Source: an uncultured Bacilli bacterium (GTDB lineage Bacteria; Bacillota_I; Bacilli_A; RF39; UBA660). From it: a DNA stretch of 44,827 nucleotides. The DNA is taken from contig CANQOR010000010.1 of the NCBI GenBank assembly GCA_947625535.1, positions 1 to 44,827 on the forward strand, in the 5' to 3' direction. The position numbers were made by a program, and so were the translations under genes. This document shows positions 35,414-44,638 of this stretch, in pieces (position 1 is the stretch's first letter; every line of letters begins with the position of its first letter). Under the pieces are notes generated by a model. The model ran no database searches and had not been told where the DNA came from. It was given only the letters and a program-made list of their open reading frames with translations.

Positions 35414-35463
35414 ATTATCACCATTTATATTTTACCAAAATATCTATAAATAATAAACAATAT

Positions 35464-35494
35464 CTAAAAAAAGAAGATACATTTTATCTTCTTT
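35464..35494 (-). terminator. Terminator of the ABC cassette with the small secreted protein
   Basis: AAGAAGATA/TATCTTCTT (35471-35479 with 35485-35493), five-base loop, run of T on the minus strand, about 100 bases past the last stop codon. The sequence from 35495 to 35592 shows no gene. Confidence 0.85.
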
Positions 35495-35592: not shown

Positions 35593-36018
35593 TTAATCTC
35601 TAATAACTGTGTATGCACTATAATTACCGCCAACACTAGTTCCAGATTTAATATTAGTCCATTTTACACGTGTAGAAGCAGAATTAGGTTGATTAAATAA
35701 CACCTTATATCTTACATCTTTTTTTTCTATTGTAATTGTAGCGGATTGTTCGTGTCCATAAAGCAAACCACTTTTATACTTTGTTACAATTTTAACAACT
35801 GGATTGTTTAAAGACAACACCGTACCCATAACAGTTGCATAATAATCTACTCCAAGTTTTGCAGTTCCAGTATATGATTGATTATATTCTAATAAAATAT
35901 TTTTTGAAATTTCTGAATCACTTTCTGATCTAACTGAAGCTGCATACACATTTGTAAATACACTTAGTCCACACATTAAAATAACTAATTTTAATAATAA
36001 TTTATTTGTTCCTCTCAT
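35593..36018 (-). CDS. Small secreted protein, last gene of an ABC transporter operon
   Basis: A signal peptide (KLLLKLVILMCGLSVFTNVYA, cleavage likely after Ala26-Ala27) leaves a mature protein of about 115 residues without cysteine. It is rich in Ser, Thr, Val and Tyr and shows alternating strands, and it ends in a Gly/Tyr-rich turn (SGTSVGGNYSAYTVIRD). The start ATG at 36018 follows AGGAGGTGA, which includes the last Arg codons and the TGA stop of the permease gene before it. The size, signal, lack of Cys, GGN-x-AY-like ending and adjacent ABC genes recall lactococcin-972-type bacteriocins, but the Trp content is low and I could not align it, so this is only a hypothesis. It could equally be a binding partner or sensor of the transporter. 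Confidence 0.78.
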   Translation of the reverse strand: MRGTNKLLLKLVILMCGLSVFTNVYAASVRSESDSEISKNILLEYNQSYTGTAKLGVDYYATVMGTVLSLNNPVVKIVTKYKSGLLYGHEQSATITIEKKDVRYKVLFNQPNSASTRVKWTNIKSGTSVGGNYSAYTVIRD

Positions 36019-36022
36019 TTTT

Positions 36023-37093
36023 TCACCTCCTCTCGACATTCATTTTATATAAAATACATAAAATGAATAACACAATAATTAATAAAAAAGCAGGAGGTAA
36101 AAAAGCATTTATTGATATTATTTTTAAATTTAAACTATAAACATTCTTTATAATCAATATTCCAATGATATTTAATAAATAAGATAGAAGTAAAGAACAA
36201 ATATTAATAATTAATTGTTTAAAAAATAAAATATTTTTTATAATTAGTTTTTTAAATCCTAATACTTTATATATCTGAATTTCATTATTTGAATCACTAA
36301 ATATATTGATAGATAAAGTCAAGAATATAATTACAAATACAATTACAAAACATATAATAACTTTCTTTAATGTATTTATTATTTCTTCGTTTTCTAACTG
36401 ATTATAATTATTATATTCATAAAATTCATATTCGCATTTCTTTTGTTCATCACATAATTTTTTTAATTTTTTTTCAATCATCACATAATTATTTTTTAAA
36501 GTAGGATTAACTTTATATATATAAGAATTACTATCTTTAAGTATTTCAGTAAATACATCATTCGAAACATTAAGTTGATAACAATCTTTAAAATCATAAC
36601 TCTTAATTTTTAAAATATAATTTCTCTTATTAATATTCATTTGTACAAAGCCATCATAATTCATATCAAGATTTAGATAAAGAGATTCATAAAATCTAGG
36701 AAATGATATATCAATTTCATCATTAATATTACTTTCATTTTTGAAAATTAATACACCATCAAAATCCATATTTATAAAAGACTTCCAGTCTGAATCATCA
36801 TATTCTTTTTCTTCATCATCATTAACATATGTTAAAGGATTATTAATATCTTGAGGTATATACAATGTTCCAGTATCAAAATTTTTACTTATTTTATTAT
36901 ATATATCATTTGAAATATCAGTATCACTTTTTAATAAATAATACGAATTATCAGCATAAAAACTGTTAATTAAATTATTATAATAATCATAAAAAGAATA
37001 TAATAAAAATGAAGTAGTAAAAATTATTGTATATAAAGCTATATAAATATAAATACTCTTTTTTCTAAAAAAACTTACTAATATCGTTTTCAT
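36023..37093 (-). CDS. ABC transporter permease, type B subunit (MacB/FtsX-like) of cassette 1
   Basis: About 356 residues: membrane helix near the start (about 14-35), an outer domain of about 190 residues, then three C-terminal helices (about 245-350) as in FtsX/MacB permeases. KVLGFKKLIIKNILFFKQ after the second helix is the coupling loop. Start ATG 37093 overlaps the TGA of the type A permease by four bases (ATGA). Its stop lies in the SD of the secreted-protein gene. It is clearly more divergent from its cassette-2 counterpart (40774-41901) than the type A subunits and ATPases are from theirs, which suggests it may decide cargo or target. Confidence 0.85.
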   Translation of the reverse strand: MKTILVSFFRKKSIYIYIALYTIIFTTSFLLYSFYDYYNNLINSFYADNSYYLLKSDTDISNDIYNKISKNFDTGTLYIPQDINNPLTYVNDDEEKEYDDSDWKSFINMDFDGVLIFKNESNINDEIDISFPRFYESLYLNLDMNYDGFVQMNINKRNYILKIKSYDFKDCYQLNVSNDVFTEILKDSNSYIYKVNPTLKNNYVMIEKKLKKLCDEQKKCEYEFYEYNNYNQLENEEIINTLKKVIICFVIVFVIIFLTLSINIFSDSNNEIQIYKVLGFKKLIIKNILFFKQLIINICSLLLSYLLNIIGILIIKNVYSLNLKIISINAFLPPAFLLIIVLFILCILYKMNVERR

Positions 37094-38316
37094 TTTAAAA
37101 CACTTATTAAACTCTTTCTTAAGAATAAACAAAAATACAAAATAGTACAAAGAAAATTAGAAATAAAGATAATACCAATAACTTTAAAAATATGTACATA
37201 ATTATAAAGAATATCTAATCCAGTATAAGAAAATGATAGAAAAATTGTATTTTTTAAAATTATAAATAATATAAAGGAGAATAAAATACCTAACACAAGA
37301 GAAACTATAATATTTAAAACTGATATTCCAAGATATATTAGCTTTATTGTATTGTTTCTATACCCAAGATTACGAAATATTCCAATATTTTTACTATCTT
37401 TGCTTACTTTCTTTCTCATAAGAAAAATTATTATAGCTATTTGCGAAGCAATGATAACATATTTAACTATAGATAAGGTTTTATTTACACTTTGAATGGT
37501 ATCATCATAAAGGAAACTTTGAATATTAACATCAGAAAAACCTAAATTCTCTAACTTCTCTTTAACTTGTTGAACATTATTAATATCATCTACAACAACG
37601 CTCCAACCATAATATATATTACTATCCTCTCCAAACTTATTATCACCTATTCTCTTTATTGAATCAAAAGAAATATAACACTGGTTATTAGTGTTCATAA
37701 CTCTACTATTATCATAAAGACCAATAACTTCAAATTTTTCTTCATATAATTTATAATCATCCATTAGTTTATCATTAGGTTCATCATTTATACCCATATA
37801 AGATAATGTGATTTCTTTACCTAATAAATCTTCACCATTAATAATATTTTCCTTTTTAATTTTAAAAGCATCATAAGAATTTGAATCTGGATAGAAGTTA
37901 ATTGGACATATCAGTTCATTTTTATTTTTGCTAAATTTATTTTTACCTTTTACAACATTATTAGAGTTATATCCTCCATATTGTAAGGTAATATATCCAT
38001 CATATTTATCATTTTGATAATTTGAATTAATAGTAATAGAATCATATTTAGAGTTATAAACATTTTCAATATTATCAACTTTTTGAATAAGATCTAAACC
38101 CAAATCCTCCCTATCAGTAAGAGCTGAAGCAGTTAAAGTCCTAAAACCATAATTAGAATTTACTATCTTGCTAACATAGATATCAAAATTTTCCTTAAAT
38201 ATAAAAATTACTAACAACGCAATGGCAGTAACAGCTATTAATATAATATTAAAAATATTTGACTTATCTCTAAAAAATAATATAAAAGTTGTTTTAAAAT
38301 AATCATTAAGTTTCAT
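37090..38316 (-). CDS. ABC transporter permease, type A subunit (MacB/FtsX-like) of cassette 1
   Basis: About 408 residues with the layout helix, outer domain of about 230 residues, three helices. Blocks shared with the cassette-2 type A subunit are YGFRTLTASALTD, VKGKN, ELICPINFYPDSNS, FEVIGLYD and NNQCYISF. The two Cys in ELICP and NNQC recur in both cassettes and could form a disulfide. IGIFRNLGYRNNTIKLIYLG is the coupling-loop segment before helix 3. I start at ATG 38316 with AGAGG upstream, inside the end of the ATPase gene (11-base overlap). Confidence 0.88.
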   Translation of the reverse strand: MKLNDYFKTTFILFFRDKSNIFNIILIAVTAIALLVIFIFKENFDIYVSKIVNSNYGFRTLTASALTDREDLGLDLIQKVDNIENVYNSKYDSITINSNYQNDKYDGYITLQYGGYNSNNVVKGKNKFSKNKNELICPINFYPDSNSYDAFKIKKENIINGEDLLGKEITLSYMGINDEPNDKLMDDYKLYEEKFEVIGLYDNSRVMNTNNQCYISFDSIKRIGDNKFGEDSNIYYGWSVVVDDINNVQQVKEKLENLGFSDVNIQSFLYDDTIQSVNKTLSIVKYVIIASQIAIIIFLMRKKVSKDSKNIGIFRNLGYRNNTIKLIYLGISVLNIIVSLVLGILFSFILFIILKNTIFLSFSYTGLDILYNYVHIFKVIGIIFISNFLCTILYFCLFLRKSLISVLK

Positions 38317-39019
38317 TGGCAACCTCTTTAAGTTCTAAGTCTTTAATTTCATAAATTATATCAGCATATTTTTTTACCTGTTTACTATGTGTTACAACAA
38401 TAACACACTTGCCGTTTTCACTCAGTTCCTTTAGATATTTAAATATTATAATTTCATTTTTTTCATCTAAGTTTCCAGTAGGTTCATCAGCTAATATTAC
38501 TTGTGGATTATTAACAAGTGATCGAGCAATTGCAACACGCTGTTGTTCCCCACCTGATAGTTGCTTTGGCATATGACTCATTCTATTTTTTAAGCCAAAC
38601 TTTTCTAGTAATTCTTTAGCAATAGATTCACGTTCATTTTTATTAAAATTTTTATTAATTAACATTGGTAACATAACATTTTCTAAAGCATTCATATAAG
38701 GGTTTAATAAATAGTCTTGAAACATTAATCCAATATTATCTCTTCTTAAATCAGATATTTCATTATCAGTTAATTTTTCACATGGTTTATCATTAAATAA
38801 ATATTGTCCCGATGTTGGTTTATCCAACAATCCTAAAATATTAATTAAAGTTGATTTACCACAACCACTTTCACCAATAATCGCATAAAATTTTCCACTA
38901 TTGAACTTAATATTCAAATCTTTTAAAACATTAATATTTCCTTTTTTAGATTTATAATTTTTACAGACATTTTTTAAAACTATTATTTTTTCTTCGTTTT
39001 TTTTCACGTAATTACCCAC
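38306..39019 (-). CDS. ABC transporter ATPase of cassette 1 (LolD/MacB-type)
   Basis: Walker [11 protein letters not shown]-loop [18 protein letters not shown], signature LSGGEQQRV, Walker [13 protein letters not shown] and H-loop VVTHSKQV are all present, the pattern of the MacB/LolD/BceA group that power mechanotransmission-type permeases. Length 237. The start is either the GTG at 39019 or the GTG at 39007; both lie among G-rich SD-like bases and I keep the longer one. First gene of cassette 1: ATPase, type A permease, type B permease, secreted protein. Confidence 0.93.
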
Positions 39020-39044: not shown

Positions 39045-39053
39045 ATTATAACA
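39045..39053 (-). promoter_or_regulatory. Extended -10 promoter of ABC cassette 1
   Basis: TGTTATAAT on the minus strand (TATAAT at 39045-39050) with a weak TTTTAC at 17 bases upstream. It separates cassette 1 from ppaC, which ends in its own terminator. Confidence 0.6.
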
Positions 39054-39070
39054 TATAATTTTATTTGGTA

Positions 39071-39104
39071 AAACAAGAAAACCCCTAGAAAAATCTAAGG
39101 GTTT
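39071..39104 (-). terminator. Terminator of ppaC
   Basis: AAACCCTTAGA pairs with TCTAGGGGTTT (11 pairs with one G-U; 39079-39089 with 39094-39104), four-base loop, TTTTCTTGTTTT tail on the minus strand. Confidence 0.88.
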
Positions 39105-40760: not shown

Positions 40761-40789
40761 AGTATATCAAATATTAGTCTTTTTTTAAA
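40761..40789 (-). promoter_or_regulatory. Possible promoter of ppaC
   Basis: Extended -10 TGATATACT (TATACT at 40761-40766) and TTTAAA (40784-40789) at a 17-base spacing, minus strand. It overlaps the stop codon of the upstream permease gene. No terminator separates cassette 2 from ppaC, so read-through is also likely. Confidence 0.45.
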
Positions 40790-41901
40790 TAATTAATATG
40801 TTTTAAAGAACAATATATATAAATAAATTCAATTAAAATAATAATTACTAAATATAAAATAATTAATTTAAAATTTAATAAGCTCAAAGAAATTTTAAAT
40901 ACAAGGTTTACACCTAAAGCAATAATGATATAAAATAATAAAGAAAATATAAGTGAAACCATATTTAATACAAAGACATTTTTTAATAAAGACAATATAT
41001 TCTGCCATTTATTATATCCTAGTTGTTTTAGTAATAACATATTACTTTCTTCATCAGATACTAAATCTTTTAATATTGCTAATAACATTATTATAAAAAT
41101 AACTGTAGAAACTACATTAGCTACCTTAAACATCATAATCATATTATCTAATAAATCATTTCTATCAATAGTATCCGATTCTTTAGGGAAGAAAGGAATT
41201 GTTATCCTAAAAAAGTCATTATCTTCCAAATTATTCCATTTTTTTTCTAATTTTTCTTGTATTTTATAATTCACTGTTTCTATATCATATATATAATTCT
41301 TATTTGTCTTTAATAATTTATTATATAAATTATCAGAAACACATACATAATTAAATGTTTTAGGTTCTAAAATATCCTTAATAATTAATGGTATTTCTTG
41401 ATTATTATATTTAAAAATTATTTCATGTTCTATATAATTTTCTAAATACTCTTTATTATAAAACCTTTCAGAAAGATAAATAATAACTTCATTATCAGAT
41501 AAATTAGTACCACAAGAATTAGCTTTGAAAGTTAAAATATCATCACCAAATAATAAATTACTCCAAAGAATTTTAGTTTCATCAAACTCTTCTTCATATT
41601 TTGAATTACCATCTTCATCAACTACAGTTTTAGGGTCATATATAATATCATTATCTAAACCAATTTCAAAACTTAAAGCTTGTCGATAAGACTTTATTCC
41701 TTTTTCTTTTCTTAATAATTCATCATGATTTTCTTTAGTATACATTAAAAAAGATGATGATTCTTGTTTTAATTTATTACTTTCATAATCAACATAATTA
41801 TAAATACTATTTAACAACATAATAATAATTGTAACAATAGAAAAAAGTTTAAAATATATTTTAGTTTTCTTTTTTCTAAAAAAGCCTTTTAATGAAATCA
41901 T
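40774..41901 (-). CDS. ABC transporter permease, type B subunit of cassette 2
   Basis: A 375-residue protein with a helix near the start (about 17-36), an outer domain of about 220 residues and three C-terminal helices. The outer domain matches that of the short protein at 43799-44638: KENHDELL, GLDNDIIYDPKTVV, NSCG against STCN, NYVCVSDNLYNKLL against SFVCIADELYDELL, and NYIYDIETV ... KKWNNLEDNDFF. LLLKQLGYNKWQNIL is the coupling loop. GGGAG lies nine bases before the ATG and the start follows the stop of the type A gene by one base. Last gene of cassette 2. Confidence 0.88.
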   Translation of the reverse strand: MISLKGFFRKKKTKIYFKLFSIVTIIIMLLNSIYNYVDYESNKLKQESSSFLMYTKENHDELLRKEKGIKSYRQALSFEIGLDNDIIYDPKTVVDEDGNSKYEEEFDETKILWSNLLFGDDILTFKANSCGTNLSDNEVIIYLSERFYNKEYLENYIEHEIIFKYNNQEIPLIIKDILEPKTFNYVCVSDNLYNKLLKTNKNYIYDIETVNYKIQEKLEKKWNNLEDNDFFRITIPFFPKESDTIDRNDLLDNMIMMFKVANVVSTVIFIIMLLAILKDLVSDEESNMLLLKQLGYNKWQNILSLLKNVFVLNMVSLIFSLLFYIIIALGVNLVFKISLSLLNFKLIILYLVIIILIEFIYIYCSLKHINYLKKD

Positions 41902-41902
41902 G

Positions 41903-43123
41903 TTACTTCTCCCTTAATATATCGCATATTTGATTACTTAATTTTTTATTTAGAAGATAATAATTTATTAATTCAGCTATAAACAATACAACTATAAAAA
42001 TCGAAATTAATAGTAATACATTATTACTTACAAAGAAATTTATATACTTAAAATAGTAAAATAGATTCTTTTCAAGTATTAAAAATAACACAGAAAATAA
42101 AGTTGAACTTATAAGAAAACTAATACCCAAAACAAAGATATTTTCAAATATTTCTTGAATTATTATTTGTTTTTTAGTATAACCACAAGATCTCAAAATA
42201 CCAAGAATTTTTGAATCATTCTTTATTTTTTTACTTATATAGTTTTTTAATATTAATAAAATAGAATATACTATAATTACAACAAAAAATATAGTTATAA
42301 AAAACAAATTACCTACAAACATTTTATCAATATAAGCAACTGTATTATCACCAACTTCATAATTGCCTAATTTTTTTATATCTTGAGAAACAGTATCAAT
42401 ATTTTTATTTTTATCAACTATCACATTAAGGGTAACATATTCATAAGAATTATATGATTTTTGAATCTCCATAATATCTTGCATTGTAGCAAAACAATTA
42501 TTAATACCCGTTCTAAAAACATTTCCATCATATAATCCTACTATTTTAAATTTTTTGGTATATTCTTCTTCTTTAATTTCTAATCCATCTGTTACTGGAA
42601 CATAATAAGTACCAGTAATTTCTCTATTTAATATATCTTTTTCATATAAAAATTTAGATTCATCAATATGTAAAATATCACTTATATTAGAATCTGGATA
42701 AAATTCATGTGGACATATTAATTCTCCAGGAGATAGTTCATCTATGTTTTTACCTTTAATAGATTGTGGTGCAGTATTTTTACTTCCATACGACAAATAT
42801 ATAGAACCATCAAGACCATTTAAAGTAAGATCACTATCAATACTAACTCCATCATATAAATTAGGATATACCTCACTTACATGTTCTATTTGTTCTAATT
42901 CTTTTATAGCATCATCTTTATTACCAGTTAAATAATCTACACTCAAAGTTCTAAAACCAATATTATTATTAATAGCATAATTATAATAACTCATAAAATT
43001 TTTCATAATAATAATATCAACAAATAAAAGAAAAAATAATAAAGAAAATATAGTAATTAATATTTTATTTTTTTTATTTCTTTTAAATAACTTAAAAGAA
43101 TTACTAACTAAATCTTTTATCAT
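41903..43123 (-). CDS. ABC transporter permease, type A subunit of cassette 2
   Basis: A 406-residue protein with one N-terminal helix, an outer domain of about 230 residues and three C-terminal helices. It shares with the cassette-1 type A protein the blocks IGFRTLSVDYLTG, IKGKN, GELICPHEFYPDSN, FKIVGLYDGN and NNCFATM, so the two are paralogues. KILGILRSCGYTKKQIIIQEIF is the coupling segment. AGAGGTAA precedes the ATG, which lies 20 bases inside the ATPase gene. Confidence 0.9.
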   Translation of the reverse strand: MIKDLVSNSFKLFKRNKKNKILITIFSLLFFLLFVDIIIMKNFMSYYNYAINNNIGFRTLSVDYLTGNKDDAIKELEQIEHVSEVYPNLYDGVSIDSDLTLNGLDGSIYLSYGSKNTAPQSIKGKNIDELSPGELICPHEFYPDSNISDILHIDESKFLYEKDILNREITGTYYVPVTDGLEIKEEEYTKKFKIVGLYDGNVFRTGINNCFATMQDIMEIQKSYNSYEYVTLNVIVDKNKNIDTVSQDIKKLGNYEVGDNTVAYIDKMFVGNLFFITIFFVVIIVYSILLILKNYISKKIKNDSKILGILRSCGYTKKQIIIQEIFENIFVLGISFLISSTLFSVLFLILEKNLFYYFKYINFFVSNNVLLLISIFIVVLFIAELINYYLLNKKLSNQICDILREK

Positions 43124-43802
43124 TTTTTACCTCTTTTAAAAGGCCATCTTCTAATAATAGATTTATATCAGCATAGTGAGAAATTTCATCACTATGTGAA
43201 ACAACAATAACACATTTGCCTTTATCAGCTAATTCTTTTAATAAATCAAATATTACTTTTTCATTTTTCTTATCTAAATTTCCGGTTGGTTCATCAGCAA
43301 TAATAATATCTGGATTATTTGCCAAAGCTCTTGCTATAGCAACTCTTTGTTGTTCTCCTCCTGATAATTCACTAGGGAAATGATTTTTACGTTCTAGTAA
43401 TCCAACCATTTCTAATAGTTCATCAGCACGTTTTTCTCTATCTAATTTAGGAATATCTTTATTAATAATCATAGGAATAATTATATTTTCATAAGCTTTT
43501 AAATAAGGATTCAAATTATATTCTTGAAATATAAACCCTATATACTTCATTCGATATTGTGAAGACTCTATATCAGTTAAATTTTTAACATTATTTTTAT
43601 TAATAAAATAATCACCAGAAGTTGTATTAGATATTAAACCCAATATTTGAACTAATGTAGTTTTACCACTACCACTATGACCCTTTATAGCATATAGTTT
43701 TCCCTTTTCAAAAGAATAATTAATACCTTGTAATACTTCTATTTTTTCTTCTTTAGTTTTATATTCTTTTTTAATATTTTTTAATTCTATAACAGTATTC
43801 AA
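43104..43802 (-). CDS. ABC transporter ATPase of cassette 2 (LolD/MacB-type)
   Basis: Walker A GHSGSGKTT, Q-loop FIFQEYNLNPYLKAYEN, signature LSGGEQQRV, Walker [14 protein letters not shown]-loop VVSHSDE. Closely related to the cassette-1 ATPase, including the unusual shared LNPY after the Q-loop. Length 232. It starts at a TTG (43802) that overlaps the TGA of the upstream gene (TTGA), with GGGGGAT as SD; the rare start may keep its level below or tied to the upstream protein. Confidence 0.92.
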   Translation of the reverse strand: MNTVIELKNIKKEYKTKEEKIEVLQGINYSFEKGKLYAIKGHSGSGKTTLVQILGLISNTTSGDYFINKNNVKNLTDIESSQYRMKYIGFIFQEYNLNPYLKAYENIIIPMIINKDIPKLDREKRADELLEMVGLLERKNHFPSELSGGEQQRVAIARALANNPDIIIADEPTGNLDKKNEKVIFDLLKELADKGKCVIVVSHSDEISHYADINLLLEDGLLKEVKNDKRFS

Positions 43803-44638
43803 TTATTATCCCCCATCTCTTTATTTAATTTATTCAATAATAGTTTTACTATAAATACAATAACTAATATCAAAAATAACAAAGCAGATATTACATTTAA
43901 ATAATTAAGAAAATCTATAAAATCATTTAATTTATTTTCTTTAGATTGAATATCTATCGAAGAATAACTAGAAACTGATAAACCATAAAAGTCGTTGTTT
44001 TCTAATTTTAACCATTTTTCTCTATATTTTTGAAGATTTTTATAACTATCAAACTTTACATCATATATATAATTTTCTTCTTTTTCTAATAATTCATCAT
44101 ATAATTCATCAGCTATACAAACAAAAGAATAATACTTAGAAGAATTTATTTGTTTAATTTTAAAATTAATTAGTTCTCCATTATATTTAAAGCTTATATC
44201 TTTATTTAAAAATTTAGATACATTGTCTTGTAGGTGTGATAATTTAATAACTATTTCATCTTTATTTATTTTTTCATTACATGTTGATGCTTTAGTAGTA
44301 TAGATAAAATCACGTTCAAAAGCCTTTAAATCATTCCAACTTAACTTTGATTCATCTATAGTATTTGTAGTAGAACCATTAGGATTTACAGTAACAGCAG
44401 GAGTATATACAATATCATTATCTAATCCAGGATAAAAGGTTAACAAACGTTCATAAGATACTACATTTTTAGTATTTGATAATAATTCATCATGATTTTC
44501 TTTACCATGTATAATAAATTTAGAAATATTTAATTCAATTTTCTCATATTCACTTCTAACATAAACATTTACAAAAACAAGTATAAAAAAATAAAATAAT
44601 ACTATTAAATATTTTTTATTCAAAATCTTTTTCTTCAA
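43799..44638 (-). CDS. Truncated type B permease-like protein (two helices, no FtsX core)
   Basis: At 279 residues this is a shortened relative of the type B permease of the same cassette. It keeps the first helix (about 9-27), the whole outer domain (HGKENHDELL, GLDNDIVYTPAVTV, STCNEK, SFVCIADELYDELL, ENYIYDVKFDS, WLKLENNDFYG) and a second helix (about 246-268), then ends with LLNKLNKEMGDNN. The last two membrane helices and coupling loop are missing. The stop overlaps the ATPase start, so the end is not a recent break: no remnant of a C-terminal half follows in any frame. Start is a TTG (44638) with a weak SD (GAGATGA); a stop codon is in frame three codons upstream. First gene of cassette 2. 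Confidence 0.82.
   Translation of the reverse strand: MKKKILNKKYLIVLFYFFILVFVNVYVRSEYEKIELNISKFIIHGKENHDELLSNTKNVVSYERLLTFYPGLDNDIVYTPAVTVNPNGSTTNTIDESKLSWNDLKAFERDFIYTTKASTCNEKINKDEIVIKLSHLQDNVSKFLNKDISFKYNGELINFKIKQINSSKYYSFVCIADELYDELLEKEENYIYDVKFDSYKNLQKYREKWLKLENNDFYGLSVSSYSSIDIQSKENKLNDFIDFLNYLNVISALLFLILVIVFIVKLLLNKLNKEMGDNN

What the first reader, a model, noticed from the sequence alone, without database searches (positions are those of the whole stretch)
35593..39019. ABC cassette with two unlike FtsX-type permeases and a small secreted protein
ATPase, type A permease, type B permease and a signal-peptide protein of about 115 mature residues form one unit: the genes overlap or touch and a promoter and terminator bracket them. 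The closest known arrangement is lactococcin-972-type bacteriocin loci, where a small secreted protein is encoded with an ABC ATPase and a large integral membrane protein; here the membrane part would be two four-helix proteins. The secreted protein has no Cys and ends GGN-x-AY-like, but has only one Trp and I could not align it. It could be a toxin, a signal, or a periplasm-side partner of a mechanotransmission transporter.
Basis: partly seen in the sequence, partly recalled or inferred. Interest (0 to 1): 0.62.

Follow-up and report, generated by a model that had tools for sequence, protein, structure and literature searches.

The report
Secreted beta-sandwich protein with cognate ABC cassette
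A gut-type Bacilli genome carries a four-gene unit that makes a small secreted protein and a membrane ABC complex evolved to match it, one of a large undescribed set that most resembles a bacterial toxin with its self-protection pump, although neither toxicity nor protection has been tested.

Summary
Read on the minus strand, 39019-35593 encodes an ABC ATPase, FtsX-type permease B, FtsX-type permease A and a 141-aa Sec-secreted protein, with overlapping or touching genes. It is not a lactococcin-972 locus: the secreted protein, both permeases and the ATPase all miss the curated models, while authentic pBL1 Lcn972 and its membrane protein hit theirs. The survey shows a recurring system. B-type permease cassettes occur in 53 of 385 genomes of the order. 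In 31 of 77 distinct cassette permeases examined, a small signal-peptide protein of about 100-130 mature residues lies beside the cassette, after A, before the ATPase or between B and A. These proteins fall into at least seven sequence types that follow the permease tree exactly. Every convincing window-type relative I found sits beside such a cassette, whereas cassettes without it are common; one pair is 92% identical up to the end of A, with the protein present in one and absent in the other. AlphaFold gives a confident eight-strand beta-sandwich with no informative relative. Most likely reading: a secreted antibacterial protein with a dedicated type VII ABC immunity complex, works like Lcn972 but is not a member. 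Function is inferred, not shown.

The parts
38306..39019 (-). ABC ATPase of the LolD/MacB/FtsE group, 237 aa
   Evidence: Pfam ABC_tran 2e-34; LolD model 231 bits, L_ocin_972_ABC 218 bits, both below their cut-offs
37090..38316 (-). FtsX-type permease B, 408 aa from ATG
   Evidence: Pfam FtsX 2.9e-9; relatives in 53 of 385 order genomes
36023..37093 (-). FtsX-type permease A, 356 aa from ATG
   Evidence: Pfam FtsX 3.8e-5, 1.3 bits below cut-off; profile match to B, 96.7%
35593..36018 (-). Secreted protein SEC: signal peptide plus about 115 mature residues, cationic, Cys-free, predicted eight-strand beta-sandwich
   Evidence: no Pfam, NCBIfam or PHROG family
39045..39072 (-). Promoter-like site, extended -10 TG-TATAAT, in front of the ATPase gene
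   Evidence: such matches are not above the shuffled count
35460..35490 (-). Hairpin followed by a T run downstream of SEC, likely terminator (approximate coordinates)
   Evidence: Folding; missed by the scan because it has too few G-C pairs
43799..44638 (-). Second cassette: A', truncated type A permease, 279 aa, lacks the last helices
43104..43802 (-). Second cassette: ABC ATPase, 56% identical to the first
41903..43123 (-). Second cassette: permease B, 32% identical to the first in the BLASTP match
40774..41901 (-). Second cassette: permease A, 25% identical to the first; no SEC follows

Best explanation
The unit is a secreted antibacterial protein with its dedicated self-protection ABC complex. 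Shown: SEC carries a Sec-type signal peptide with no lipobox Cys or second membrane helix, is translated from a strong ribosome site coupled to the permease genes, and its type is tied to the type of permease B beside it. Inferred: SEC is released, acts on the envelope surface of competing, closely related bacteria, and the ATPase-A-B complex (type VII, mechanotransmission type) keeps it off the producer's membrane or wall target by an ATP-driven movement of the paired ectodomains. Copies without SEC would be immunity-only or resistance loci.
For: Same ATPase-B-A-SEC order in four genera of the family. SEC-like protein beside 31 of 77 distinct permeases, in at least seven sequence types that need only the minimum 7 changes on the permease B tree (shuffled mean 21.4, 0 of 200); SEC and B distances correlate (Mantel r 0.51, p 0.004). 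SEC-like genes enriched next to cassettes (11 of 91 against 9 of 463, p 6e-5). Asymmetry: every convincing window-type SEC found has the ABC, but 46 of 77 permease rows have no detected SEC, and L086 and L087 are 91.6% identical over 2.6 kb ending at the end of A, with SEC only in L086. Own genome has four cassettes and one SEC. Positions vary. Mature SEC is cationic, pI 9.4; 28 of 35 SEC-like are cationic. MacB-type ABCs protect Gram-positives against antimicrobial peptides (PMC5985334) and lcn972 with orf2-orf3 is the described analogue (PMC4055356). The host makes peptidoglycan (five transpeptidase genes).
Against: No activity is known for any member. SEC does not evolve faster than permease A, so there is no special toxin-like rate. 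Different SEC types are not linked to each other by convincing sequence similarity, and only the window type has a confident model (the second model has pLDDT 59). Many relatives carry a second secreted protein and a membrane-spanning XRE regulator that this reading does not explain. Contig ends can hide SEC genes in some 'empty' cassettes.
Confidence: 0.5

Rival explanations
1. SEC is the cargo: Sec brings it across the membrane and the type VII ABC complex then pulls it off the membrane surface and releases it, as MacB or LolCDE do. It may be an effector, adhesin or signal.
For: Tight linkage and co-divergence of SEC with the permeases; the ATPase scores best against LolD; type VII systems move proteins already across the membrane (PMC5985334).
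Against: Many cassettes, and three of four in this genome, have no SEC; the L086/L087 pair keeps the ABC without SEC. A Gram-positive-type cell needs no second export step for a Sec protein.
Confidence: 0.2
2. SEC is an extracytoplasmic partner or regulator of the ABC complex, comparable to hydrolases or adaptors worked by FtsEX, acting on the cell wall of the producer itself.
For: FtsX-type permeases work by mechanotransmission on extracellular partners (PMC7668044, PMC6355983); overlapping genes; glycan-binding domains are among the nearest folds.
Against: SEC has no catalytic domain, is patchy (1 of 15 genomes of the genus) and is absent from many cassettes, so it is not a core subunit.
Confidence: 0.15
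3. SEC is a secreted signal or environmental ligand sensed through the ABC complex, with the XRE membrane regulators seen beside relatives as the output.
For: XRE proteins with a membrane helix and an extracellular part lie upstream of many cassettes; BceAB-type complexes sense peptides (PMC5985334).
Against: The window locus has no such regulator, and 115 folded residues is large for a pheromone.
Confidence: 0.12

Closest known systems
Lactococcin 972 / streptococcin loci (lcn972-orf2-orf3, scbABC)
   Same: Small Sec-secreted protein encoded with an ABC ATPase and a large membrane part; the ABC can persist without the secreted protein (D39-type scb loci, PMC11796350). ATPases 36% identical.
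   Different: No match to PF09683; two FtsX halves instead of one DUF1430 protein of 648 aa; order ATPase-B-A-SEC instead of bacteriocin-permease-ATPase; mature protein about 115 against 66 residues.
LolCDE
   Same: One ATPase with two unlike FtsX-type permeases, a heteromeric type VII complex.
   Different: LolC/LolE models reach only about 20 bits on B and none on A; there are no outer-membrane lipoproteins here, and a secreted protein is attached.
MacB/YknYZ and BceAB type VII peptide-resistance transporters
   Same: MacB-like ATPase and FtsX-type membrane parts; roles in peptide immunity (PMC5985334).
   Different: BceB has ten helices and MacB is fused to its ATPase; here two four-helix proteins, with no MacA-type adaptor in the cassette.
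Jelly-roll type beta-sandwich domains (GOLD, CBM6/35/36, PirA, TPP II domain)
   Same: General fold of the predicted SEC model, Z 8 to 10.
   Different: Identity around 10%, many unrelated families score alike, so no kinship or function follows.

Membership tests
Lactococcin 972 family | Secreted protein matches PF09683 / TIGR01653 | tested here: not met
   No hit at E 10 for window SEC or 12 relatives; authentic Lcn972 hits at 8.7e-15; profile comparison gives nothing
Lactococcin 972 family | Associated membrane protein of the DUF1430 / TIGR01654 kind | tested here: not met
   A and B hit only FtsX; pBL1 orf2 hits DUF1430 at 5.9e-22; profiles do not align
Lactococcin 972 family | ATPase above the TIGR03608 cut-off | tested here: not met
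   218.4 bits against 254.85
Lactococcin 972 family | Small Sec-secreted protein encoded together with an ABC ATPase and membrane protein | tested here: met
Lactococcin 972 family | Beta-sandwich fold like Lcn972 | tested here: inconclusive
   SEC is a predicted beta-sandwich; Lcn972 is not among the rows shown and could not be compared directly
Lactococcin 972 family | Binds lipid II, inhibits septum formation | not testable with these tools
   Needs experiment
Type VII ABC (MacB/FtsX/LolCDE) superfamily | FtsX C-terminal permease domain | tested here: met
   B 37.5 bits over cut-off; A 24.2 against 25.5 but homologous to B
Type VII ABC (MacB/FtsX/LolCDE) superfamily | One N-terminal helix, large ectodomain, three C-terminal helices | tested here: met
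   Hydrophobicity of window A and B
Type VII ABC (MacB/FtsX/LolCDE) superfamily | ATPase of the LolD/MacB/FtsE group | tested here: met
   Best NCBIfam models are LolD, L_ocin_972_ABC, MacB and FtsE, all below equivalog cut-offs
LolCDE | Permeases reach the lolCE / LolE model cut-offs | tested here: not met
   About 20 bits against 362 or more for B, none for A

The most novel reading that the evidence does not exclude
An undescribed, diverse class of antibacterial beta-sandwich proteins in uncultured gut-type Bacilli, each type paired with its own heteromeric type VII ABC immunity complex, and in the full version also with a membrane-spanning XRE sensor and a conserved secreted protein of about 240 residues.
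Probability: 0.35. Interest if true: 0.75.

Novelty: new variant of a known kind. Interest (0 to 1): 0.56.

Why it matters
If the reading is right, a common group of uncultured gut-type Bacilli carries a varied arsenal of folded secreted antibacterial proteins that no family database names, each with a matched ABC complex. The functions of the two ABC proteins have not been verified in any Lcn972 locus (PMC11796350); cassettes with and without the secreted protein, 92% identical over their shared ABC part, offer a direct test of whether such ABC genes are immunity genes.

Tried and rejected
Lcn972 membership. Known family or solved relative of SEC by sequence: none. Fold-based naming: hits are generic jelly rolls, viral library generic as well. 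SEC in viral contigs and B in viral contigs or plasmids: none. Weak SEC matches in other genomes: those looked at were prohead proteases, other secreted proteins or other ORFs; most of the rest were not inspected. A toxin-like fast rate of SEC: rejected, permease A diverges as much. A fold for a second SEC type: model too poor, so no search was made with it. Literature on such loci in RF39-like Bacilli: nothing found.

Full report
WHAT IS THERE. The window is one whole contig (C10, 44,827 bases) of a metagenome-assembled genome of 1.82 Mb in 113 contigs, 88% complete, 7% contaminated. On the minus strand lie ATPase 39019-38306, permease B 38316-37090, permease A 37093-36023 and secreted protein SEC 36018-35593. 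ATPase and B overlap, B and A share ATGA, and the stop codon of A is inside the strong ribosome site AGGAGGTG of SEC. A hairpin between the upstream gene and the cassette ends the upstream transcript; a hairpin plus T run follows SEC. The promoter-like site is no better than chance in number.

THE ABC PART. The ATPase is closest to LolD, lactococcin-972-type, MacB and FtsE models, below every equivalog cut-off. B passes Pfam FtsX, A falls 1.3 bits short, and the two profiles are homologous. Both have one N-terminal helix, a large ectodomain and about three C-terminal helices. A second cassette, A'-ATPase-B-A, lies upstream at 44638-40774; A' is truncated, and no SEC follows. Two more cassettes lie on contigs 31 and 45 of the same genome. 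The second window cassette groups with these two and with L088 (100/99 support), not with the first cassette, which also speaks for the contig belonging to this genome.

THE SECRETED PROTEIN. SEC matches no Pfam, NCBIfam or PHROG family and no solved sequence. The mature part has no Cys, one Trp, pI 9.4 and charge about +5. AlphaFold with 13 relatives gives mean pLDDT 86.5, about 92 to 98 over most of the mature domain, an eight-strand beta-sandwich. Structural neighbours are GOLD domains, carbohydrate-binding modules, PirA and similar jelly rolls at Z 8 to 10 with about 10% identity; this names a fold class, not a function.

THE SURVEY. Only the window genome of 15 in its genus has SEC. Searching 385, 193 and 392 genomes gave three more sure members; all stand directly after permease A in ATPase-B-A-SEC units, in four genera in all. 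A scan of 84,980 species with the B profile gave 22 loci, in Bacilli and also two Clostridia-type MAGs; most carry a small secreted protein beside the ABC genes. Among 385 genomes of the order, 53 have a B permease at E 1e-25. In 60 loci fetched from these, further small secreted proteins of about 100-130 mature residues appear, often 60 to 110 bases before the ATPase, or between B and A. They are enriched next to the cassettes, and most of the 'elsewhere' cases lie within 2.5 kb as well. They form separate sequence types; links between types are weak, so a single origin is plausible but not shown.

CO-INHERITANCE AND ASYMMETRY. On a tree of 77 distinct B permeases, eight SEC types need 7 changes, the least possible; shuffles need 21.4 on average, and none of 200 reaches 7. 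For ten window-like loci SEC and B distances correlate, r 0.51, p 0.004. Yet 46 of the 77 rows have no SEC found. L086 and L087 are 91.6% identical from within the ATPase region to the last codons of A and then diverge; L086 has SEC, L087 has none. So the ABC complex is kept without SEC, while SEC was not found without the ABC. That is what toxin and immunity genes show, for example scb loci that keep scbBC without scbA (PMC11796350), and is not expected if SEC were a subunit or the only cargo. Contig ends limit the count of empty cassettes.

COMPARISON WITH LCN972. From pBL1 (NC_004955), authentic Lcn972 hits PF09683, and its 648-residue membrane protein hits DUF1430 and FtsX only weakly. The window proteins hit neither PF09683 nor DUF1430, the profiles do not align, the ATPase is 36% identical, and gene order and sizes differ. 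The locus therefore may work like Lcn972 but is not a member on the sequence tests available.

LARGER FORM. Many relatives also have a membrane-spanning XRE regulator and a conserved secreted protein of 220-252 residues upstream. The latter occurs in 99 of 322 genomes, has no family, and in the window's genome sits with its XRE partner on contig 31. The window locus is thus a reduced form.

VERDICT. Toxin plus ABC immunity 0.5; cargo 0.2; wall-side partner 0.15; signal 0.12. Shown: gene unit, signal peptide, homology of A and B, association, co-inheritance, asymmetry. Inferred: release, target, immunity.

Noticed in passing
L075:6581-7279, L119:8065-8805, L147:8723-9439, L170:6534-7283: Conserved secreted protein family of about 240 residues (core 'SYQHA...GxGGVFxF...YDxMxGV') without Pfam or NCBIfam model, in 99 of 322 genomes of the order.
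   Followed up: partly
L112:4394-5470, L084:5976-7040, L147:9540-10604, L170:5411-6502: XRE helix-turn-helix proteins with one membrane segment and an extracellular part, recurring upstream of these ABC cassettes and next to the 240-residue secreted protein.
   Followed up: partly
window 43799-44638: Truncated duplicate of permease A (A') in front of the second cassette's ATPase; it keeps the ectodomain and two helices.
   Followed up: partly
L109:909-6122 (G000 contig 31): In the same genome a 193-residue secreted protein is followed by a 281-residue protein and two fused MacB-like ATPase-permeases (647 and 599 aa), upstream of another ATPase-B-A cassette.
   Followed up: no
L120:4834-10193, L122:2568-6672: Cassettes with several tandem B permeases (up to four open frames) between the ATPase and A.
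   Followed up: no
L125:1220-2057: Two tandem, diverged SEC-like genes on the strand opposite to the cassette.
   Followed up: no
L102:1504-2794: A secreted protein of 142 aa next to a membrane protein that looks like an ABC-2 type permease, possibly another bacteriocin-like pair.
   Followed up: no
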